DNA from: Methanocalculus taiwanensis
Lineage (GTDB): Archaea; Halobacteriota; Methanomicrobia; Methanomicrobiales; Methanocorpusculaceae
Reading direction: 5' to 3'
Length of the DNA stretch: 64,000 nucleotides
Assembly (NCBI RefSeq): GCF_024372745.1
Contig: NZ_VOTZ01000008.1
Location: 1-64,000 of the forward strand
The stretch's first letter is position 1. Every line of letters starts with the position of its first letter. The notes below the pieces were generated by a model. That model saw nothing but the letters and a program-made list of their open reading frames with translations, ran no database searches and had not been told where the DNA came from. Both the position numbers and the translations under genes were made by a program. This document shows, in pieces, positions 11,699-56,013 of this stretch.

Positions 11699-12997
11699 AT
11701 GGGTATGCCAATCGACTGGTACGACGAATTTGTTGATCTGAGCTATACCCCTGCTGGGGACGACATCGTCTGTCTCTTCTCCTGCACACCCGCATCAGGG
11801 ATCAGTATGAAGGAGGCAGCAGGAAGGGTAGCTTCAGAGAGCTCCACCGGGACATGGACAACCCTCCATTCCCTTCCGCCACGGATGAGGGATCTCCAGG
11901 CTACCGCCTTTGAAATTGACGGGCAGTACCTGAAGATTGCCTATCCGATCGGTCTCTGGGAAGAGGGCAATGCCGTCCAGCTCTTAAGCGGTATCGCCGG
12001 GAATATCTTCGGGATGAAGGCAGTCGACCAGCTCAGGCTGATTGATGCAACCCTCCCGCAGGCGTACCTGAAACACTTTAAAGGACCGCATTTCGGCAAT
12101 GACGGAATCAGGGAACTGACCGGCATCAGGGGCCGCCCCCTTACCGGGGCAGTGCCAAAGCCGAAGATCGGGTTCTCCGCATCCGAACATGCCGATATCG
12201 GGTTTGAAACATGGATGGGAGGGTTCGATTTTGTCAAGGATGACGAGAACCTCACCTCCACTTCCTTCAACCGGTTCGATGACCGGGTGGCCGCACTCAC
12301 AGAAAAACGCGATAAGGCTGAGCAGATCACAGGTGAGAAGAAGTCAGCGTTCATCAATATCACTGCAGATACCGAGACGATGAAGCAGCGGGCGGATCTG
12401 CTGGCTGCCCATGGATGGAACTATGCGATGATCGATGTGGTTGTCACCGGATATGCCGCTGTCATGACGCTCCGTGACTACTGCTCAGACCTCGGCCTTG
12501 CGATCCATGCCCACCGGGCAATGCACGCGGCATTTGATCGCGATCCCCGGCATGGGATCACGATGCAGTTCCTTGCCAAGATGATGCGGCTGATCGGCGT
12601 TTCGCAGATCCATACCGGAACAGCAGTCGGAAAGCTTGTCGGCACCCCTCAGGAAGCAAAAGTTCTTGCCGATTTCCTGCGGGAAGAGAAGGTGCAGGCA
12701 GTCCCTGAGATGGCGCTTGACCAGAACTGGGGGCATATTAAAAGTGCCTTCCCTGTCTCCTCAGGCGGACTCCATCCCGGTCTTGTCCCCGATGTCCTTG
12801 ACATCTATGGCAGCGAACTCGTGCTCCTCGTATCAGGCGGCATTCACGGCCACCCGGATGGGACACGTGCCGGGGCTGTAGCCACCATGCAGGCGATTGA
12901 AGCATGGCAGGAAGGCGTCTCACTTGAGGAGAAGGCTAAAAAGGCGCCAGAGCTCGCACGTGCACTTGAGAAATGGGGCGCCTATAAGCCGATATAA
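11699..12997 (+). CDS. rbcL: Ribulose-1,5-bisphosphate carboxylase, archaeal form III
   Basis: The protein fixes CO2 onto ribulose bisphosphate; archaeal form III enzymes act in nucleotide salvage or, in some Methanomicrobiales, a phosphoribulokinase-dependent cycle. Catalytic residues are intact: Lys154 and Lys156 (KPKIG), carbamylated Lys180 with Asp182 and Glu183 (GGFDFVKDDEN), His272-Arg273 (HAHRAMHA), His305 and Lys312 (HTGTAVGK). This makes a catalytically dead RuBisCO-like protein unlikely. The final phosphate-binding region reads SGGIHGHPDG. At 432 residues it is full length. No phosphoribulokinase or AMP phosphorylase gene is nearby, so the pathway cannot be settled here. The start may be the second ATG at 11705. 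Confidence 0.93.
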   Translation: MGMPIDWYDEFVDLSYTPAGDDIVCLFSCTPASGISMKEAAGRVASESSTGTWTTLHSLPPRMRDLQATAFEIDGQYLKIAYPIGLWEEGNAVQLLSGIAGNIFGMKAVDQLRLIDATLPQAYLKHFKGPHFGNDGIRELTGIRGRPLTGAVPKPKIGFSASEHADIGFETWMGGFDFVKDDENLTSTSFNRFDDRVAALTEKRDKAEQITGEKKSAFINITADTETMKQRADLLAAHGWNYAMIDVVVTGYAAVMTLRDYCSDLGLAIHAHRAMHAAFDRDPRHGITMQFLAKMMRLIGVSQIHTGTAVGKLVGTPQEAKVLADFLREEKVQAVPEMALDQNWGHIKSAFPVSSGGLHPGLVPDVLDIYGSELVLLVSGGIHGHPDGTRAGAVATMQAIEAWQEGVSLEEKAKKAPELARALEKWGAYKPI

Positions 12998-13024
12998 TCA
13001 GAAAGGGTATACTCCTGTTCTCTC

Positions 13025-13918
13025 TCACAGAGGGGAGGGGGCTCTCATCCTTTTTCGGAGTGCCATTCCCTCTGCAAGCAGATAGAGACCGATGAGCAGG
13101 GCAATCCCTGCCAGAATATACATCAGGATCGCGATGATCGCCTCCGGTGCAATGACCGCCATGAATGCAACAGTGAGCGAGAGGATACCTACCACAAGTC
13201 TCAGGTAGAAACCTTCAGGAACAGCTTTTTTCCCTCTTAAAACCCTTTTCAGTGAGATCCAGGCACTTGTAAAGGTCCATATCGCCAGCACAAAAAGGAA
13301 GGTTCCTGCAAGTTCATCCGGTTCCGAGAAGAACGAGCTGATGGCCAGAAGAGCAATCCCTAGCCCGATAATGAAGCGCCCAATCGATCGCAATCGAAAT
13401 GGCCTCATTACAAACGCAGACCTCAGAAAAGGATAAGAAAGAGCCAGGAAGAGGACGGGGATGATGACCCGGGTGAGGCTGTCAAATGTGATGAATGGTT
13501 CAGTCAGTATCAGGATGCCAAAGAGGAGCATGAAGATACCGCAGAAGGTAACGAGCTTCCATGCCTTCACCTGTTCCGAGAGCACTTCAGGAGTATTCTG
13601 TACAAGAGCTTTTTTTGAATCGATAAGGAGAGCTGATATGGTATCAATCACCATCAGGACGAGCGGGGCATCATCTGCAAGATGAAGAACCGGGTGCTCT
13701 TTTGGATCATAGCGATCCAGGTGCACCCTGTATTCGCTGGCGGTCTCATGCAGGTGGTACTGGCCGAACCGGTAGCTTGCGAGTGTTCCGGGGGAGGGGA
13801 TATTCATGCGGGAGATGACCCATTTCTCCGAAAGTGGAGATATAACCTCGCTCTTTGGCACCACCACCTCCCAGACCCCTTCATGGAGGGGGGCAAGGAG
13901 ATCTTCTAACCTCTGCAT
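13025..13918 (-). CDS. Membrane protein with HdeD/DUF308-like region
   Basis: The 297-residue protein has a soluble N-terminal part of about 130 residues, then about six hydrophobic segments in the pattern of HdeD/DUF308 proteins (short repeated pairs of membrane helices, with GLYLLAEGMALRKRMR at the end). The soluble part has no motif I recognise. The function of the family is poorly known (acid or stress response in bacteria). It runs opposite to the RuBisCO gene and has 57 bases before the next minus-strand gene. Confidence 0.6.
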   Translation of the reverse strand: MQRLEDLLAPLHEGVWEVVVPKSEVISPLSEKWVISRMNIPSPGTLASYRFGQYHLHETASEYRVHLDRYDPKEHPVLHLADDAPLVLMVIDTISALLIDSKKALVQNTPEVLSEQVKAWKLVTFCGIFMLLFGILILTEPFITFDSLTRVIIPVLFLALSYPFLRSAFVMRPFRLRSIGRFIIGLGIALLAISSFFSEPDELAGTFLFVLAIWTFTSAWISLKRVLRGKKAVPEGFYLRLVVGILSLTVAFMAVIAPEAIIAILMYILAGIALLIGLYLLAEGMALRKRMRAPSPL

Positions 13919-46051: not shown

Positions 46052-46720
46052 GTGAAAACGATAACATATATCGTTCAGATGGAAATTGCTGGCGACACTG
46101 CTATGTGGACAAGACCGGATACGGGTGACAACCCCGTCAGCTATCCGGCACCTACATACTCGGCTGTTAAAGCTATTTTTGAGTCTGTGATGTGGGGACC
46201 TGCGATTGAAATTATTCCACTTAAGGTGGAAATATGTGCGCCGATACAGTTTCATAATTATTACACAAATTATGGCGGCCCGCTACGAAAAAATGAAAAC
46301 ATAAAAAAAGGTAACTGCTATCAGCTTTCCGCCACCGTCCTTATTGATGTCTGCTATCGCTTGTACGCCGAAGTTGTGCCGTATAAAATAAAAGACAAGC
46401 TACCTCAAGCGGCAAAGAACTGGGATAAGGCGACCACTTCGCCGGGGCACGCATATCAGGAAATGTTCACCAGAAGGCTGAAACGTGGACAGTGCTTTTC
46501 TGTACCATACTTAGGATGGCGGGAGTTCACGCCATCCTATTTCGGCGAGTTTCGCGATGACACACAAATCATGTCCGATATGGAGGCAACAGTTATTCCT
46601 TCCATGCTACGGCAGGTGTTTTCAGAGGGCTATCAATCCGAAGTTGCATATCAGTATGATACGGATGTTGAGATTACAGGAGGTGTACTGATGTACTTGA
46701 AAGGAGATAGGTCATGCTGA
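46052..46720 (+). CDS. cas5c: CRISPR-associated protein Cas5c (type I-C)
   Basis: In type I-C this protein replaces Cas6: it cuts the precursor crRNA and stays on the 5' handle of the complex. The 222-residue protein starts with the RAMP pattern (VQMEIAGDTAMWTRPD, then VSYPAPTYSAVKAIFESV) and has the late PYLGWREFTPSYFG segment typical of Cas5d/Cas5c. The GTG start follows an in-frame TAA directly; ATG at 46079 is an alternative. It overlaps cas8c by 7 bases. GC is lower than in host genes. Confidence 0.9.
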   Translation: MKTITYIVQMEIAGDTAMWTRPDTGDNPVSYPAPTYSAVKAIFESVMWGPAIEIIPLKVEICAPIQFHNYYTNYGGPLRKNENIKKGNCYQLSATVLIDVCYRLYAEVVPYKIKDKLPQAAKNWDKATTSPGHAYQEMFTRRLKRGQCFSVPYLGWREFTPSYFGEFRDDTQIMSDMEATVIPSMLRQVFSEGYQSEVAYQYDTDVEITGGVLMYLKGDRSC

Positions 46721-48753
46721 ACGAGCTACACCATCTGTCTGTAACCCTTGCAAACAACAATATCAAGCCACAGGGGTGGCACCCCCATTACAATCTATTG
46801 CCAAATGGAACCTGCTATCGCATATGGCTTAGCGATGATGGCCTTGTATCAGACGTTGAACTGATGAGTAAGGATCTGGTTAGGGTCTGCAGAAAATTTG
46901 GCAATAATCAGGGGACATTTCCCGCTTTCAATATTGCACCGTTTTATCGTGTTACCTCGAAGGAGGATAAAGACTATTATAAATCGATTTATGAGGGTAA
47001 AATAGAGCTGGATGTAGGCTATTTGAAATCAATATGCACTGCCGATAATTGGATTCCAAAATTTCGTAAAAAGATATTGCGCTGCCTGCGCACTCAAATA
47101 CCAAATGCACCTGAAAAAAGTGCAATCACCGCGCTGATGAAGATCACCGCATCGCTTGACATTGATACGCTGCGTAGCACCCTTGAGAAGCATGTTTGGA
47201 AGAAATTATCAAGCGATATTAAAGCATATCTGCCGCTGCTTATTCATAATGGAAATGAAAAGAAGCAGCCAGAAGACGATTTCGGGTCGATTTCAATTAT
47301 ATTTGATTTGACAAATTGGGAGAGATTCGAATATCCAATAGCCAATGAGAACACCACTAAGCAAGTGAATGATTGGCTTTTTGCCAATGAAAGTGATCTT
47401 CAGCCTGAAAGAAGCGATCAACTAGACGCTTTTGGAGCCCCATATGCAGATCTTGGCGAACCCATGCCATCTGTTCGACTCACACCGGGATTTGAGGTGG
47501 CGTTACGTTCCATGTTCCATGAACAAGTGTGCCAGTTTCGCTATGGGAAGGCTGATGACAAATCTTTTCCGATTAACAAGGCGAATCGTGACACCCTAAA
47601 AACCTCGCTAGAATGGATTGTGAAACCTGACAATGAAAATATTACATGGCGCAGAATTGACAAGGATGCAATGCTGTTTATCTATCCTAACAAGGTTCCA
47701 GAAGTCCTCCCAAAATTTGCGGCTCTTTTCGGCAATACAGAAAATAAGAGTGATATCACAACCAGATTTGAAAAGGTTGCAGAAGAGTTTAGTAAAACAC
47801 TCAAAGGGCTTGAAACAAAGCAGAAGCCGGAAAATATCCATGTGTTTGCATTACAGCAAATACCACCAGCCCTATCTAAACGAGCAAAGGTGATTTTTTC
47901 ACGCAATCTGACCCCAGGCGGGCTGATAAACGCAGCTACCGAGTGGCAACAAGGGTGCCACAATCTTCCCCCTATTACAAAAATTGACCCCATAACGCCT
48001 TTTCCTTTAAGTATCGCAAAAATCGCAAACAAAGTTTGGAAACAAAATGGCGAACGAGCAGATGGCAAGAGAGGAGTTATGTTAATTCGTTACTATCAAG
48101 GCATGGAGCTACTCTTGGACAAATCAATGGCGTCACAAATAGTGCGATTTGCTGGAGGCGTAACCGCGAACTCATTAGGTTTGATGTTGTTTATCGGTAA
48201 TAACCTGCCAAGAGGCAAGCATCTTGTCAGTGATAAGCAAAAAGAAAAAATGGTTAATGAGCGAAAACCGGAAATTGGCAATTTATTTCCCTTACTCGGA
48301 CTGCTCCTTTACAAGAGCGGCATAAACAAGGAGGCTTACATGCAAGACACGGCATATTTAATCGGGCAGCTACTGAAAATATCCGACGAGCTGCACGCGC
48401 TGTATTGTGAGATCAAGCGCGAAGGCGAAGTGCCGCCGCAACTGGCAGGAAACTCTGTGTTCATAACAGCGTCAGAAACACCGGCACAAGCCTTGGCTCT
48501 GCTGAGTACACGAATGAATCCGTACATAGCGTGGGCTGATCAGTACAGACGTCAGGGTAAGGATAAAAGCGGCTTGGCGGCGTGGTACAAGCGCCAGTAT
48601 GGCTTACTCATGCCACAGCTGCACCAAAAAATGACAGAGGATATCCGTTTTGGGGACTTGGAAAAAGCTCAGTTGTTTATCGGCTACCTTGCGGATCTTC
48701 CCAAATTGACGAACAAACAATCTACTGAGGAGGTATGCTCAGATGACAAATGA
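46714..48753 (+). CDS. cas8c: CRISPR-associated protein Cas8c (Csd1)
   Basis: This is the large subunit of the type I-C Cascade, which recognises the PAM. The 679-residue protein has the Csd1 layout: an N-terminal region with a KDYYKSIYEGKIELDVGYL segment, LTPGFEVALRSMFHEQ, and a C-terminal part with RKPEIGNLFPLLGLLLYKSG and NPYIAWADQYRRQGK. GGAG lies nine bases before the ATG. It overlaps cas5c and cas7c, so Cascade subunits are made together. Confidence 0.9.
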   Translation: MLNELHHLSVTLANNNIKPQGWHPHYNLLPNGTCYRIWLSDDGLVSDVELMSKDLVRVCRKFGNNQGTFPAFNIAPFYRVTSKEDKDYYKSIYEGKIELDVGYLKSICTADNWIPKFRKKILRCLRTQIPNAPEKSAITALMKITASLDIDTLRSTLEKHVWKKLSSDIKAYLPLLIHNGNEKKQPEDDFGSISIIFDLTNWERFEYPIANENTTKQVNDWLFANESDLQPERSDQLDAFGAPYADLGEPMPSVRLTPGFEVALRSMFHEQVCQFRYGKADDKSFPINKANRDTLKTSLEWIVKPDNENITWRRIDKDAMLFIYPNKVPEVLPKFAALFGNTENKSDITTRFEKVAEEFSKTLKGLETKQKPENIHVFALQQIPPALSKRAKVIFSRNLTPGGLINAATEWQQGCHNLPPITKIDPITPFPLSIAKIANKVWKQNGERADGKRGVMLIRYYQGMELLLDKSMASQIVRFAGGVTANSLGLMLFIGNNLPRGKHLVSDKQKEKMVNERKPEIGNLFPLLGLLLYKSGINKEAYMQDTAYLIGQLLKISDELHALYCEIKREGEVPPQLAGNSVFITASETPAQALALLSTRMNPYIAWADQYRRQGKDKSGLAAWYKRQYGLLMPQLHQKMTEDIRFGDLEKAQLFIGYLADLPKLTNKQSTEEVCSDDK

Positions 48754-49624
48754 AATCAAACGCGCAACAGGACTTTTGGTAATTGAAGCTGTGAACTCAA
48801 ACCCTAACGGCGACCCCGATCGTGAGAGCGAACCTCGCCAGCGCCCGAATGGTCGTGGCGAAATATCTCCAGTATCCTTCAAACGTAAGCTACGCGATTT
48901 GCTTGAGGATGAAGAGAGTCCATTATTTCGAAGCCTGCCAGAGAGGTTTAGAGATAATCCAGACCACTATCGCATACTTGAATCACGCGGGCGTGAACGT
49001 ACTGCAATTCAAAAAGAGATGGGGGATATAAAAAAATTTGACCAACAGTCCTTCTTAAACAGCACATTCGTAAAAAAATATTGGGATGCCCGTATATTCG
49101 GAAACACATTCCTTGAAGAAGGCGCGGCAAAAGGCTTCATAAAAACTGGTGTGGTTCAGTTTGGAGTTGGAGTTTCCATATCACCGATAGCTATTGTACG
49201 CCATACAAACACAAATAAAGCAGGTGTACAAGAGGGTAAAAATGCCGGAATGGCACCGCTTGCGTTCCGGATCGTACAGCATGGCGTGTATTGCATGCCT
49301 TTCTTTATCAATCCGAATTATGCAGGAAAGAGCGGCTGTACCGCTGACGATATTGAACTGCTAAAACTGCTAATCCCAAAGGCGTACGATTTGAACCGCT
49401 CAGCCATACGTCCTGATGTACGAATCCGACATGCCTGGTATATCGAGCATACAAACGCACTTGGAAGCTGTCCGGACTATCTGTTGCTTGAAGCGTTGAC
49501 GCCCATTCGCATTGGTAATGTTTCCGATCCCTCAAATGAATGGTCTGACTACGAGGACAGGACATCGTTGCCTCCGGATCTTACATCTCGTGTCTCCAGT
49601 TTAGTCGATTTGATGACATTGTGA
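48743..49624 (+). CDS. cas7c: CRISPR-associated protein Cas7c (Csd2)
   Basis: Cas7c forms the backbone that binds the spacer part of crRNA. Conserved Csd2 features are RATGLLVIEAVNSNPNGDPDRE (split by the DPD motif), VKKYWDARIFGNTF and GVVQFGVGVSISPI, plus the late RPDVRIRHAWYIEH. GAGGAGGT lies just before the ATG. The length (293) is normal. It overlaps cas8c by 11 bases and cas3 by 4 bases. Confidence 0.93.
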   Translation: MTNEIKRATGLLVIEAVNSNPNGDPDRESEPRQRPNGRGEISPVSFKRKLRDLLEDEESPLFRSLPERFRDNPDHYRILESRGRERTAIQKEMGDIKKFDQQSFLNSTFVKKYWDARIFGNTFLEEGAAKGFIKTGVVQFGVGVSISPIAIVRHTNTNKAGVQEGKNAGMAPLAFRIVQHGVYCMPFFINPNYAGKSGCTADDIELLKLLIPKAYDLNRSAIRPDVRIRHAWYIEHTNALGSCPDYLLLEALTPIRIGNVSDPSNEWSDYEDRTSLPPDLTSRVSSLVDLMTL

Positions 49625-51801
49625 AGGAATATTTCGCTCATAGTCCGAAGGATGGGTATCCTGCCCAGACATATACGCAGCATATCAACGGAGTATTAGA
49701 ACAAGCCCGGTGTCATGCGTCTTACGCTGCCCGATACTCCCTTACAGATGGAGAATTGCTTGAAAATACAGCGGAAGTTGCAGCAATTTTCCACGATTTA
49801 GGTAAACTCGATAAGGAAAATCAGCTCATTTTATCTGGACAGATAAAGGCAAAACGTCTGCCACTTAATCATGCGGATGCAGGTGCGGCTTTTTTACTTG
49901 ATGACATATCACCCTCTCTTCTTGCTGCTGTTTCTATCGCAGCGCACCATATTGGGCTTCCGGATTTTTCCAGAGAAAGTACCCGCGGGGATTCGGCATT
50001 CCGCGATGATAGCATTAAGACATGTATTGATACATCCTTGTCGGAATATTCGCAAATACACACCAGCAACATTAGCGCAAGACCGGTAATAGAAAATGAC
50101 ATGCCATCAGGCGATTTATCGGTATTCCTGCGCATGCTGCTGTCATGCCTGGTGGATGCCGATCATACTGATACCGCTTCGCATTACGGCAAACATCCTG
50201 AGTCATCGTATCCTATTCCGCTTCGTCCGGAAGAGCGTCTTACGTTATTGGATAGTTATGTTGAAACACTGGGTAAAACCGGAGAAGATCACGAACGAAA
50301 TCGGCTGCGCTCTGAAATGTATACGGTGTTCAGGGACTCGTCAATATGCGAAAACATCGCCTCCTGTGATGCTCCCGTTGGTTCAGGCAAAACAACCGCG
50401 GTCATGGCGCATCTGTTGGCGCAAGCGAGTAAGCGTGGATTGCGCCGAATAATTGTGGTGTTGCCGTTTACAAATATCATTCAGCAGTCGGTCGAGAGAT
50501 ACCGTGAAGCACTGGTTTTCCCAGACGAAAATGGCGAAGAGGTTGTGGCTGAACTGCACCATCGCGCCGAATTTGAAAGTGAGGATACGCGGCATCTCAC
50601 AGCGCTATGGCGTGCGCCGATTATCGTCACAACAGCGGTTGCGTTCTTTGAAACCCTTGCGGCGAAAACTCCATCTGCACTTAGGCGGCTTCATGAGTTG
50701 GCAGGCAGCGCAGTATTTGTGGATGAGGCACATGCCGCTCTGCCTGCGCACTTATTACCATTAGCATGGCGGTGGATGAATATTTACGCGAACGAATGGT
50801 CATGCTACTGGATGCTGGCTTCAGGTTCGCTCAATCAATTCTGGGAAATCAAAGAGATATCCGAAGAGAAGTTGGAGGTCCCAAATATTGCAAATCCATC
50901 CTTACGAGCTTCGCTCAGTGCATTCGAAGACAGGCGCATAGAATATCGGGCTAATCTGACGCCACAGCCGCTGGAGGAGTTTGTTGAAGTTGTAGCGCAA
51001 TCGCAAGGGCCAAGGCTTGTTATACTCAATACAGTGCAAAACGCAGCATTAGTCGCAGATTATATATGCAAAAAATACGGGCGCGAACGTGTAGAGCATA
51101 TGTCAACCTCACTTACGGCGAACGACAGGGAGAAAACACTTGAGCGGGTGAAGTCGCGGCTTAAAAGTCCCGATGATGACGACTGGATGCTTGTCGCCAC
51201 ATCCTGCGTGGAGGCGGGTGTTGACTTTTCGTTTAGAACCGGTTTCCGTGAGCTTGCATCCCTAACCTCATTGTTGCAAGCGGCGGGGCGTGTCAACCGA
51301 AATGGTGAGTATGGTGTTTCTGAAATGCACACATTTTGTCTTTCAGAGAGCAATATGTTAAATTCAAATCCCGTATTAAAAAATTCCGCCTCTGTCTTGC
51401 GTAACCTCATTGAAAGAGGAGTTGACATTTCCCCGTCTCTCGTGACCGAGGCTATCGAGCGAGAACTTAAAATATATGGCAGCAAACCGATACATAAAGA
51501 ATTGCTCAAATTTGAAGATATAAAGGATTTTCCGTGTGTTGAAAAGAATTTCAAGGTAATTGAAAAAGTTTCACGTATTGCTGTGGCGGACAAGAAAATC
51601 GTCAATAGAATACAGAATGGGTATTGCGACTGGCGTGAATTACAGAGGCATTCGCTGCAAATAGCCTCCTATAAACTGCAAGAGCTGAATATACCGCCAA
51701 TCACAGAAGAGATTTACCACTGGAATCTCGCATATGATGATTTCCTGGGATATATGGCAGGGATTATTCAAAAATCTGAGCCCGAAATTCTCATATATTA
51801 A
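49621..51801 (+). CDS. cas3: CRISPR-associated nuclease-helicase Cas3
   Basis: Cas3 unwinds and degrades DNA marked by Cascade. The HD nuclease has His21 (TQHING), His58-Asp59 (FHDLGK), HADAG and AHHIGLPD. The helicase has Walker A VGSGKTT (Lys257), DEAH at 368-371 and the motif VI-like QAAGRVNR. It is 726 residues and starts with GTG overlapping cas7c. In most type I-C loci cas3 stands first, before cas5; here it follows cas7. A gap of 142 bases separates it from cas4. Confidence 0.93.
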   Translation: MKEYFAHSPKDGYPAQTYTQHINGVLEQARCHASYAARYSLTDGELLENTAEVAAIFHDLGKLDKENQLILSGQIKAKRLPLNHADAGAAFLLDDISPSLLAAVSIAAHHIGLPDFSRESTRGDSAFRDDSIKTCIDTSLSEYSQIHTSNISARPVIENDMPSGDLSVFLRMLLSCLVDADHTDTASHYGKHPESSYPIPLRPEERLTLLDSYVETLGKTGEDHERNRLRSEMYTVFRDSSICENIASCDAPVGSGKTTAVMAHLLAQASKRGLRRIIVVLPFTNIIQQSVERYREALVFPDENGEEVVAELHHRAEFESEDTRHLTALWRAPIIVTTAVAFFETLAAKTPSALRRLHELAGSAVFVDEAHAALPAHLLPLAWRWMNIYANEWSCYWMLASGSLNQFWEIKEISEEKLEVPNIANPSLRASLSAFEDRRIEYRANLTPQPLEEFVEVVAQSQGPRLVILNTVQNAALVADYICKKYGRERVEHMSTSLTANDREKTLERVKSRLKSPDDDDWMLVATSCVEAGVDFSFRTGFRELASLTSLLQAAGRVNRNGEYGVSEMHTFCLSESNMLNSNPVLKNSASVLRNLIERGVDISPSLVTEAIERELKIYGSKPIHKELLKFEDIKDFPCVEKNFKVIEKVSRIAVADKKIVNRIQNGYCDWRELQRHSLQIASYKLQELNIPPITEEIYHWNLAYDDFLGYMAGIIQKSEPEILIY

Positions 51802-51910
51802 GGAATATATCGATATTGATCTTCCGGATAATCTCCCAAAACTGCTTTTAACATCGACCATCCCTTCCCCAGAGTCAGCTCTCTCCATTGATAGATTCTT
51901 ATAATCCGGC

Positions 51911-51918
51911 TTATAATA
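51911..51918 (+). promoter_or_regulatory. TATA-like box of cas4-cas1-cas2
   Basis: TTATAATA predicts initiation at about 51940, four bases before the cas4 ATG. It lies in the only sizable gap of the cas locus, so the adaptation genes can be transcribed apart from the effector genes. Confidence 0.5.
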
Positions 51919-51943
51919 ATGCTTCATTGGAGAGCAAATCCTT

Positions 51944-52600
51944 ATGAATCCCGATGATTATCTCCTGCTCAGCGGCATCCAGCATTTTGCATTCTGCAGG
52001 CGGCAGTGGGCGCTTATCCATATCGAGCAGTTGTGGAAAGAGAACGTGCTCACCTTCGGAGGCAGACAGATGCACAGGAATGCAGATGATCCTTTCTTTA
52101 CAGAGAGCCGGGGCGATCTTTTGATCTCGCGGAGCGTGCCTCTGGTTTCACATTCATTGAAGGTGTACGGAATTGCGGACGTGGTTGAGTATCATCGTTC
52201 GGATACGGGGGTTGCGATCTCCGGACGAGAGGGATATTGGACCGTTGTGCCGGTGGAGTATAAGGCGGGCAGGAAGAAGCCGGACGACCGCGACGAGGTG
52301 CAACTGTGCGCTCAGGCGATCTGCCTTGAGGAGATGTACAGAACCCGGATTGAAAAGGGATATTTATATTATGGCAAGACCAGGCGGCGAACGGAGGTAC
52401 TCTTTGATGATGAAATTCGCCGCAGAGTGGCGGAATTAGTCGCCGGGATGTATGAACTCTATGATGCAGGCATCACCCCTCCGGCACTTCTGCTACCACA
52501 CTGCAAGAATTGCTCTCTTATCGATCTCTGCATGCCAAATGTCTCCTCACGCAGGCGTTCGGTAGACCGCTACCTTGCCGACAGTATCAGAGGAGATTAA
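51944..52600 (+). CDS. cas4: CRISPR-associated protein Cas4 (adaptation nuclease)
   Basis: Cas4 trims and orients new spacers together with Cas1-Cas2 and reads the PAM. Iron-sulfur ligands are Cys17 (FAFCRRQW) and the C-terminal group PHCKNCSLIDLCMP. The RecB-type nuclease core includes VVPVEYKAGR with the catalytic Glu and Lys, and DEVQLCAQAICLEEM. The length is 218 residues. The gene ends two bases before cas1. Codons (AGG, CGG, GAT) match the host better than those of cas5-8-7-3. Confidence 0.93.
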   Translation: MNPDDYLLLSGIQHFAFCRRQWALIHIEQLWKENVLTFGGRQMHRNADDPFFTESRGDLLISRSVPLVSHSLKVYGIADVVEYHRSDTGVAISGREGYWTVVPVEYKAGRKKPDDRDEVQLCAQAICLEEMYRTRIEKGYLYYGKTRRRTEVLFDDEIRRRVAELVAGMYELYDAGITPPALLLPHCKNCSLIDLCMPNVSSRRRSVDRYLADSIRGD

Positions 52601-52602
52601 TC

Positions 52603-53637
52603 ATGAGAAAACTGCTGAACACTCTGTATGTCACGAATCCCGACTCCTACCTTAAAAAAGACGGGGAGAACCTTGTCATTTCTGTTGAGCAGAAGGAGGT
52701 GGGACGATTACCGATCCACAACCTGGAGAGCGTCATCTGTTTTGGGTTTATGGGAGCAAGTCCGGGTGCTATGGAGCTGTGCACATCCCGCAATGTTGGT
52801 CTTGCATTTGTTTCACCATATGGTAAGTTTCTCGGACGGGTTTCGGGATGGGTGTCCGGGAATGTCCTGCTTCGCAAGAGGCAGTATCTTCTTTCGGATG
52901 AGGAGGCGGCGGCAACCCGGATTGCAATCAATTGTGTTCTCGGGAAACTACTGAATTGCCGTAGTGTTTTGCAGCGGTTTGGTCGTGATTACCCCGATAT
53001 GACTTCACCAACGTTAAAAGAGAATCTTCAGCGGCTGACAGAAGGTGTTCGCCTGTTGAAGGAGTCGCCACCCGTGACGCTGAATGAGCTGAGGGGTCGA
53101 GAGGGAATTCTGTCGAAGTATTATTTTGACTGTTTTGAGGATCTGATTCTGTCGCAGGATCCGACATTCATGTTTGAGTTCCGGAGCAGGAGGCCTCCGC
53201 TGAATCGGGTGAACGCTTTATTGTCATTTATTTATACGATGATAGCGGTTGACTGTGCATCAGCTCTTGAATCTGTTGGACTGGATCCCCAGGTTGGGTT
53301 TCTGCATCGCGCCCGACCGGGGAGAATGAGCCTTGCACTGGATTTGATGGAAGAGTTCAGGCCATATATTGGAGATCGTTTTGTGCTAAGTCTGATCAAT
53401 AATCGGGTTGTTTCGACAGATGATTTCATGGTGAAGGAGAATGGGGCGGTGATCCTGACAGATACAGCGCGGAAGACGGTCCTTGCAGCATGGCAGAGGA
53501 GGAAGGCGGAAGAGGTTATGCATGGATATCTCAACGAGAGGATTCCGCTTGGCCTATTGCCCTATGCGCAGGCGATGCTGCTGGCACGGCATCTTCGGGG
53601 TGATATTGACGGATATCCACCATTTTTGATGAGATGA
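52603..53637 (+). CDS. cas1: CRISPR-associated integrase Cas1
   Basis: Cas1 inserts new spacers into the array. The ATG at 52603 (MRKLLNTLYVTNPDSYL) is chosen over an upstream open frame because AGGAG precedes it by seven bases and the N-terminus is that of type I-C Cas1. Catalytic elements are the LNRVNALLSFIYTM helix and VGFLHRARPGRMSLALDLMEEFRP with His and acidic residues. Full length at 344 residues. It is followed by cas2 after 20 bases. Confidence 0.95.
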   Translation: MRKLLNTLYVTNPDSYLKKDGENLVISVEQKEVGRLPIHNLESVICFGFMGASPGAMELCTSRNVGLAFVSPYGKFLGRVSGWVSGNVLLRKRQYLLSDEEAAATRIAINCVLGKLLNCRSVLQRFGRDYPDMTSPTLKENLQRLTEGVRLLKESPPVTLNELRGREGILSKYYFDCFEDLILSQDPTFMFEFRSRRPPLNRVNALLSFIYTMIAVDCASALESVGLDPQVGFLHRARPGRMSLALDLMEEFRPYIGDRFVLSLINNRVVSTDDFMVKENGAVILTDTARKTVLAAWQRRKAEEVMHGYLNERIPLGLLPYAQAMLLARHLRGDIDGYPPFLMR

Positions 53638-53657
53638 ATCTTTGATGAGGTGAATAT

Positions 53658-53948
53658 GTGTTTGTTCTGGTCACGTACGATGTAAATACGGAGACTCCTG
53701 AAGGACGGCGCAGGCTGCGCAGGGTTGCGAAAATATGTATGAATTATGGTACTCGCGTGCAGAATTCAGTGTTTGAGTGTGTGGTGGATTCCGTTCAGCT
53801 GATGGAGATGAAAGCAAAGATCGGTGATATTATTGATCCTGCGATTGATAGCGTACGGTACTATAATCTGGGCAAGCATGGTCGGGCTCATGTCGAGCAT
53901 GTCGGAGCAAAGCCGGGGTTGAATGTTGAGGATGTATTGATCTTTTAG
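53658..53948 (+). CDS. cas2: CRISPR-associated protein Cas2
   Basis: Cas2 is the structural partner of Cas1 in spacer integration. The 96-residue protein begins MFVLVTYDVNTET with a GTG start preceded by GAGG, carries RRLRRVAKICMNYGTRVQNSVFEC, and has the ferredoxin-like fold pattern of the family. It is the last cas gene; the leader and array follow. Confidence 0.95.
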   Translation: MFVLVTYDVNTETPEGRRRLRRVAKICMNYGTRVQNSVFECVVDSVQLMEMKAKIGDIIDPAIDSVRYYNLGKHGRAHVEHVGAKPGLNVEDVLIF

Positions 53949-54235
53949 TGATGCCTTCAGCAAGTGATGCTTTCTGCAAGTATTGCGAAGGTGAAGTGCC
54001 CATGGTTTCCCGGGGAGGTTCGCGATCGGGCATAAAATAGCTTTTTTGTTATATGCAGCTTTTTCCGGACATTTCTGGAATCTACCACGCAGTGATGTAT
54101 ACTACAAGTCACATCAAAGATAGTTCTTTATTCAGAAATGTTATTCTGCGTTATTTTGGATATTGTTTTAATTTTGGTGCCTATAATTGCGGCACAAGGA
54201 AAATAAGATATCTAACTTCCTATAAATAGTTTAGA
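53949..54235 (+). promoter_or_regulatory. CRISPR leader
   Basis: These 287 AT-rich bases join cas2 to the first repeat and hold no supported gene. TATAAATA at 54221-54228 sits only seven bases before the first repeat; initiation some 25 bases later would fall inside repeat 1. Other AT-rich runs further upstream could also be promoters. The leader lies on this side because the variant repeat is at the far end. Confidence 0.75.
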
Positions 54236-56013
54236 GTCGTGCCTCACGCAGGCACGTGGATTGAAATTTAAACTCCATTACCCTCTGCGCTTTGGTCCCG
54301 GTCGTGCCTCACGCAGGCACGTGGATTGAAATCAGAACGCACAACCAGCGACCAAGCAGGCACAGTCGTGCCTCACGCAGGCACGTGGATTGAAATTCCT
54401 AGTAACCCTCTAGGTTACTATATGATCATGTCGTGCCTCACGCAGGCACGTGGATTGAAATCAACCATGATTCCGGGACTGCGAAATCATAGGTGTCGTG
54501 CCTCACGCAGGCACGTGGATTGAAATACTCCAGAAGAATTGTTACAATATATGATCTCGTCGTGCCTCACGCAGGCACGTGGATTGAAATCACGAAAATT
54601 GCGTGATGGGGATGCAGTGTGAGTCGTGCCTCACGCAGGCACGTGGATTGAAATATTGAAGCATACAACGAATGGTTCGATGTTTTGTCGTGCCTCACGC
54701 AGGCACGTGGATTGAAATGCTGTCCAGACACATTGAAAATTTCCACGGTCGGGTCGTGCCTCACGCAGGCACGTGGATTGAAATAAACGTTACTCCTCTC
54801 CAATATCCGTTGAACCGAGTCGTGCCTCACGCAGGCACGTGGATTGAAATAAACAATCTTGAAACACCACCCCCATCATCAACGTCGTGCCTCACGCAGG
54901 CACGTGGATTGAAATTAATGGCTGATATGAGGGTGTTTTAAAGGAAGTGGTCGTGCCTCACGCAGGCACGTGGATTGAAATAAAGGACTAACTGATCGCA
55001 TCCAGGCCGAAATAGTCGTGCCTCACGCAGGCACGTGGATTGAAATTTCTCCGGCAACCTCTAGGTTACCACATGATCATTGTCGTGCCTCACGCAGGCA
55101 CGTGGATTGAAATCAACAACCATCTCCAACCAATCCAGAAAGCGGGCGTCGTGCCTCACGCAGGCACGTGGATTGAAATATAAATACCGGGTGTTGTACG
55201 CCAATAGGCTGATGTCGTGCCTCACGCAGGCACGTGGATTGAAATCGGTACGCTTTTAAAGTTACGTCTAATACTTCAGTCGTGCCTCACGCAGGCACGT
55301 GGATTGAAATACACCACATACTATACTCGCCAGGCAGATCACGTCGTGCCTCACGCAGGCACGTGGATTGAAATTTTGTAGAGGTTGAAGAGTAAGACAT
55401 ATTGACGTCGTGCCTCACGCAGGCACGTGGATTGAAATTACCCATAGCAGCCTTAGACCCCGGAGATAGAGTCGTGCCTCACGCAGGCACGTGGATTGAA
55501 ATAGACGGTAGTATCAGTAGTTACCGCCACCGCGTCGTGCCTCACGCAGGCACGTGGATTGAAATAAGCATGGTAAACGCTATTGCACCATCTGACCCGT
55601 CGTGCCTCACGCAGGCACGTGGATTGAAATTCACATGGATACATTTTACCTCACCCCGAACCGGTCGTGCCTCACGCAGGCACGTGGATTGAAATGGTTA
55701 TATCCGCATCAATATCATTGATAACGGGTCGTGCCTCACGCAGGCACGTGGATTGAAATTGTTGCACCGATAAGTGGTCTATCCTGAAGAATCGTCGTGC
55801 CTCACGCAGGCACGTGGATTGAAATATATCTTTTGAACCACTACTTCACGACCCCGGTCGTGCCTCACGCAGGCACGTGGATTGAAATCGATATGGTTTG
55901 TCTACAAGGGCAACGAGAAGTCGTGCCTCACGCAGGCACGTGGATTGAAATTGCTCCTCTCCCTATCCATCGGCTATCTCGGTCGTGCCTCACGCAGGCA
56001 CGTGGATTGAAAA
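54236..56013 (+). CRISPR. Type I-C CRISPR array, 28 repeats and 27 spacers
   Basis: The repeat is 32 bases, beginning GTCGTGCC and ending GTGGATTGAAAT, with a 7-bp stem CGTGCCT/AGGCACG around CACGC. It is the usual I-C repeat type. All 28 repeats appear identical except the last (55982-56013), whose final T is A, marking the leader-distal end. Spacers are 30-35 bases, mostly 32-34. Spacers 3 (54397-54429) and 13 (55047-55081) are related to each other. Transcription is to the right, and the crRNA handle should be the last 11 bases of the repeat. The uniform repeats suggest an active array. Confidence 0.98.

What the first reader, a model, noticed from the sequence alone, without database searches (positions are those of the whole stretch)
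54397..55081. Two spacers target diverged versions of the same sequence
Seen: spacers 3 (54397-54429) and 13 (55047-55081) share CCTCTAGGTTAC and ATGATCAT in the same register, 25 of 33 aligned bases. In one frame both encode PLGY(Y/H)MI, with mismatches elsewhere. Inference: the cell acquired immunity twice against related viral or plasmid genes. Spacer 3, nearer the leader, should be the later acquisition. Such a pair points to a recurrent, diversifying invader.
Basis: partly seen in the sequence, partly recalled or inferred. Interest (0 to 1): 0.55.

Follow-up and report, generated by a model that had tools for sequence, protein, structure and literature searches.

The report
Two CRISPR spacers against related targets
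An archaeon's CRISPR memory holds two similar but different entries that most likely record two encounters with related versions of one invader; this is an ordinary, already described pattern, and the invader itself was not found.

Summary
Spacers 3 and 13 of a 27-spacer type I-C array share 25 of 33 ungapped bases, 21 of 23 in a core block. No other pair in the array comes near, and 0 of 3000 shuffled arrays reach the score. All seven I-C Cas proteins lie upstream, and the far repeat is altered, so spacer 3 is probably the later acquisition. Two captures from homologous sites in related invaders is the best reading.

No protospacer was found: none in the window's own genome, in 232 genomes of its order, in phage or plasmid records, or in exact scans of viral and genome contigs. 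The invader, the PAM and the gene are therefore unverified.

A rival fits the differences about as well: with one 1-base gap all seven differences are transitions, and both minus strands fold into the same 8-bp hairpin. An inverted repeat or structured RNA is as plausible a target as a gene.

Such spacer pairs in type I-C, an older mismatched and a newer matching member, are already in print for Legionella (PMC5071653, passages read). New member of a known kind; low interest.

The parts
54397..54429 (+). Spacer 3 (33 nt), the member nearer the leader
   Evidence: minus strand folds to a hairpin at -9.8 kcal/mol, 3 of 200 shuffles as good
55047..55081 (+). Spacer 13 (35 nt, the longest of the 27)
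   Evidence: minus strand folds to the same hairpin at -11.7 kcal/mol, 1 of 200 shuffles as good
54407..54429 (+). Core block in spacer 3 shared with spacer 13 (21 of 23)
55058..55080 (+). Core block in spacer 13 shared with spacer 3 (21 of 23)
54236..56013 (+). CRISPR array, 28 repeats, 27 spacers; the last repeat (55982-56013) ends in A instead of T
46052..53948 (+). Type I-C cas operon: cas5c, cas8c, cas7, cas3, cas4, cas1, cas2
   Evidence: PADLOC profiles; ORFs
53949..54235 (+). Leader region between cas2 and the first repeat (position only; no leader motif tested)

Best explanation
[quoted passage not shown] Shown: the similarity beyond chance, the complete I-C machinery, the polarity marks, and no other copy of the core (within 3 mismatches) in the host's own genome. 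Inferred: that spacer 13 came first, that the later invader mismatched it on the PAM-side half where most differences lie, and that spacer 3 was then gained, possibly by priming from the imperfect match. Whether the site is a coding stretch or a hairpin-forming inverted repeat is undecided (I give the hairpin about 0.5, the gene about 0.4).
For: Pair score 19, against 10.5 for the next pair and at most 18 in 3000 shuffled arrays. Lengths differ (33 and 35), so it is not simply a copied unit. All seven I-C proteins match their PADLOC models. The core with up to 3 mismatches occurs only as these two spacers in 232 genomes of the order, the own genome included. Differences cluster on the 5' (PAM) side: 6 of 8 in the first 10 positions ungapped. 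The same pattern was reported for Legionella type I-C, with older spacers mismatched in PAM or seed and newer ones perfect (PMC5071653, passages read).
Against: No protospacer was found in any collection searched. PMC5071653 saw no enrichment of primed spacers near the priming site, so priming does not by itself predict a second hit on the same site. A repeated element inside one invader would give the same pair.
Confidence: 0.72

Rival explanations
1. Both spacers come from one invader that carries two diverged copies of a short inverted repeat (a transposon end, operator, or structured RNA), not from two relatives.
For: Both minus strands form the same 8-bp hairpin. A random outer left arm would complete the stem in spacer 13 in 0.5% of trials. 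In spacer 3 five of six frames hold a stop.
Against: No invader found, so no repeat seen. Four random transitions keep all 8 pairs in 15% of trials on one strand (28% on either), so the pairing is not strong proof once transitions are assumed; with any four changes it is 0.8% (1.4%). Other, unpaired spacers fold as well (spacer 4: -12.2, spacer 20: -10.3).
Confidence: 0.18
2. An old spacer unit was duplicated inside the array and then drifted.
For: Identical neighbouring spacers do occur in a related array (L040 spacers 2 and 3).
Against: The two differ in length and at 8 positions while 27 of 28 repeats are identical; they are ten units apart and no neighbouring spacer is duplicated.
Confidence: 0.04
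3. The target is a host or proviral sequence, so the pair is self-targeting.
For: None found.
Against: Own genome (99.86% complete, 69 contigs) holds the core only in the array, with up to 3 mismatches allowed; the same in 232 genomes of the order.
Confidence: 0.02
4. Chance similarity of unrelated spacers.
For: None.
Against: 0 of 3000 shuffled arrays reach the score.
Confidence: 0.02

Closest known systems
Legionella pneumophila type I-C spacer pairs against LME-1 (PMC5071653)
   Same: Type I-C; pairs of spacers in one system aim at overlapping regions; older member mismatched in PAM or seed, newer member a perfect match; authors read it as repeated invasion and possible priming (passages read).
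   Different: There the target element is known and sequenced; here none was found, and the two spacers are not matched to any flank or PAM.
Spacer redundancy in other arrays of this family
   Same: L040 holds a pair sharing 16 exact bases, L042 a pair sharing 14 on opposite strands.
   Different: Those share bases in shifted register or on opposite strands; spacers 3 and 13 share them in nearly the same register with scattered differences.

Membership tests
Type I-C CRISPR-Cas | cas5c, cas8c, cas7c, cas3, with cas4, cas1, cas2 | tested here: met
   PADLOC: Cas5c 2.4e-28, Cas8c 9.1e-219, Cas7b/c 2.1e-54 / 2.6e-34, Cas3c 5.5e-107, Cas4c 1.3e-84, Cas1c 7.7e-145, Cas2c 6e-41. The best Cas7 model is shared by I-B and I-C.
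Type I-C CRISPR-Cas | 32-base repeat with spacers of about 33 bases | tested here: met
   32-base repeats, spacers of 30-35 bases
Type I-C CRISPR-Cas | TTC PAM | not testable with these tools
   No protospacer found. PMC8482600 (passages) lists TTC, CTT, TTT, CTN, CCN and TTN for I-C and suggests that the repeat's last base is PAM-derived where the PAM is TTC; here it is T.
Repeated acquisition against related invaders | Both protospacers at a homologous site in related elements | tested here: inconclusive
   Searched, no protospacer found
Repeated acquisition against related invaders | Spacer similarity beyond chance within one array | tested here: met
   0 of 3000 shuffles reach score 19
Primed adaptation | Older spacer imperfectly matches the invader that gave the newer one | not testable with these tools
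   Needs the invader sequence; only the spacer-to-spacer differences are known

The most novel reading that the evidence does not exclude
The site is a hairpin-forming inverted repeat of a mobile element that draws spacer capture repeatedly, so that DNA structure, not only the PAM, decides where a type I-C system samples its invader.
Probability: 0.06. Interest if true: 0.5.

Novelty: new member of a known kind. Interest (0 to 1): 0.18.

Why it matters
The pair is a small natural record of an archaeon meeting one kind of invader twice, and the core gives a usable probe for that unknown element. If the hairpin reading held, it would bear on how prespacer sites are chosen. Otherwise it adds one more case to a described pattern.

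Tried and rejected
Protein-frame search: PLGY[YH]MI back-translated gave 0 contigs in IMG/VR. In 232 genomes of the order, with one mismatch, it gave, besides the spacers, one place in each of two genomes of the same genus (G001, G002), the same 23 bases in both. The match lies in short ORFs (95 and 91 aa) and seems to end just upstream of another gene's start (that gene was not tested), and about two such matches are expected by my own rough count (no call); rejected as chance.

Half-spacer searches in IMG/VR: the 3' arm plus tail gave 4 contigs, all with the codons for GYYMI inside long ORFs. The four proteins align only over short stretches around the motif (best E 0.019 between different proteins) and fit different or no PHROG families, so they show only that the peptide occurs in viral proteins. 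The hairpin pattern gave 11 contigs, six of them with one and the same flanking sequence, and in 232 genomes of the order only the two spacers. The 5' halves gave 3 and 2 contigs. None of these 20 contigs matches a whole spacer at more than 23 positions, so all were rejected as protospacers.

Phage blastn gave only 17-base matches to five Vibrio phages, E 4, and none for spacer 13. Plasmids gave none. The genome-contig scan gave none. No relative's spacer resembles 3 or 13 beyond score 10.

The idea that spacer 13's first three bases (TTC) are the retained PAM of spacer 3's site, as a two-gap alignment suggests, was kept only as a thought: 6 of 261 spacers start with TTC and the PAM here is unknown.

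Full report
What is there. The array runs from 54236 to 56013, with 28 repeats of 32 bases and 27 spacers of 30 to 35 bases. Upstream, on the same strand, lie cas5c, cas8c, cas7, cas3, cas4, cas1 and cas2. The repeat farthest from the cas genes ends in A instead of T, the usual mark of the old end (recalled), so spacer 3 should be younger than spacer 13. In the window's own genome these 28 are the only repeats of this type.

The pair. Spacers 3 and 13 agree at 25 of 33 positions without gaps and at 21 of 23 in the core. The score is 19; the next best pair of 351, both strands, is 10.5. In 3000 arrays with each spacer's letters shuffled the best score was 18, once. These shuffles keep base composition, not dinucleotides.

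Background. I cut spacers out of 13 further arrays in 10 relatives' genomes. I had fetched regions from 11 of the 14 relatives with repeat matches, leaving out G006, G015 and G022; the regions from G003 and from contig C18 of G004 gave no array. That made 234 spacers besides the window's 27. In some of these arrays my finder set the repeat edges too tight, so a few 'spacers' carry repeat letters. Within-array pairs scoring 14 or more were: the window pair; an identical neighbouring pair and a pair sharing 16 bases in shifted register in L040; and a 14-base pair on opposite strands in L042. Related spacers in one array are thus not unheard of in this family, though the in-register diverged form was seen once.

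The target. The 23-base core with both variants, allowing 3 mismatches, was found only as the two spacers in the own genome, in 33 family genomes and in 232 genomes of the order. Exact scans of IMG/VR and of genome contigs gave 0 contigs. Phage and plasmid blastn gave nothing beyond 17-base matches. Half-spacer scans gave 20 IMG/VR contigs, none matching a whole spacer at more than 23 positions. The target is therefore outside these collections, or too diverged for exact patterns. The other 25 spacers were not searched against any collection.

Gene or hairpin. Yet in that frame the three upstream codons are unrelated while six of the seven core codons, through ATC, are identical to the base (read), a sharp edge that gene drift alone does not explain well. 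With one 1-base gap every difference is a transition (7 of 7). Both minus strands then fold to the same hairpin: TAGTAACC/GGTTACTA in spacer 3 and TGGTAACC/GGTTGCCG in spacer 13, 8 of 8 pairs each, one of them changed on both sides. Shuffles fold as well in 3 and 1 of 200. On the plus strand spacer 13 keeps only 6 of 8 pairs, and 33 of 200 shuffles fold as well. Against over-reading: four random transitions keep all pairs in 15% of trials on one strand, and unrelated spacers 4 and 20 fold as strongly. I chose the gapped alignment after seeing the hairpin. I leave the question open with a slight lean to the hairpin.

Mechanism. Two separate captures are the simplest account. Ungapped, 6 of 8 differences lie in the first 10 positions, the PAM side, where type I crRNAs are most sensitive (recalled). 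A descendant of the first invader could then have escaped spacer 13 and been captured again as spacer 3. Priming could have helped, but is not shown.

Prior work. Rao and colleagues (PMC5071653, passages read) report type I-C spacer pairs that target overlapping regions of one element, the older mismatched in PAM or seed and the newer perfect, and also same or overlapping spacers within single arrays. Two of their independently acquired laboratory spacers hit the same protospacer. PMC8482600 (passages) gives the range of I-C PAMs. PMC6519985 (passages) describes Cas4-dependent trimming at the PAM in type I-C. PMC5749868 (passages) models arrays and treats primed adaptation only in outline. Paper searches; the list for Methanocalculus, virus and CRISPR was empty.

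Host. No call names the organism. From the numbers of genomes and genera in its family and order I guess a Methanocalculus-like methanogen (recalled, unverified).

Noticed in passing
window 54462-54494 (spacer 4); L038 spacer 15: Spacer 4 shares 14 exact bases (GCGAAATCATAGGT) with a spacer in another genus of the family, and that spacer in turn resembles one in L040: possibly a shared target.
   Followed up: partly
L040 (array at 12305-13888), spacers 1 and 9: Two spacers share 16 exact bases in shifted register, as overlapping protospacers would.
   Followed up: no
window 46052-53948: cas3 lies between cas7 and cas4 instead of at the head of the operon, the order I recall as usual for I-C.
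   Followed up: no
window 54236-56013: The I-C repeat ends in T, as in other arrays of the family; PMC8482600 suggests that a final C is PAM-derived for TTC, so the PAM here may differ.
   Followed up: partly
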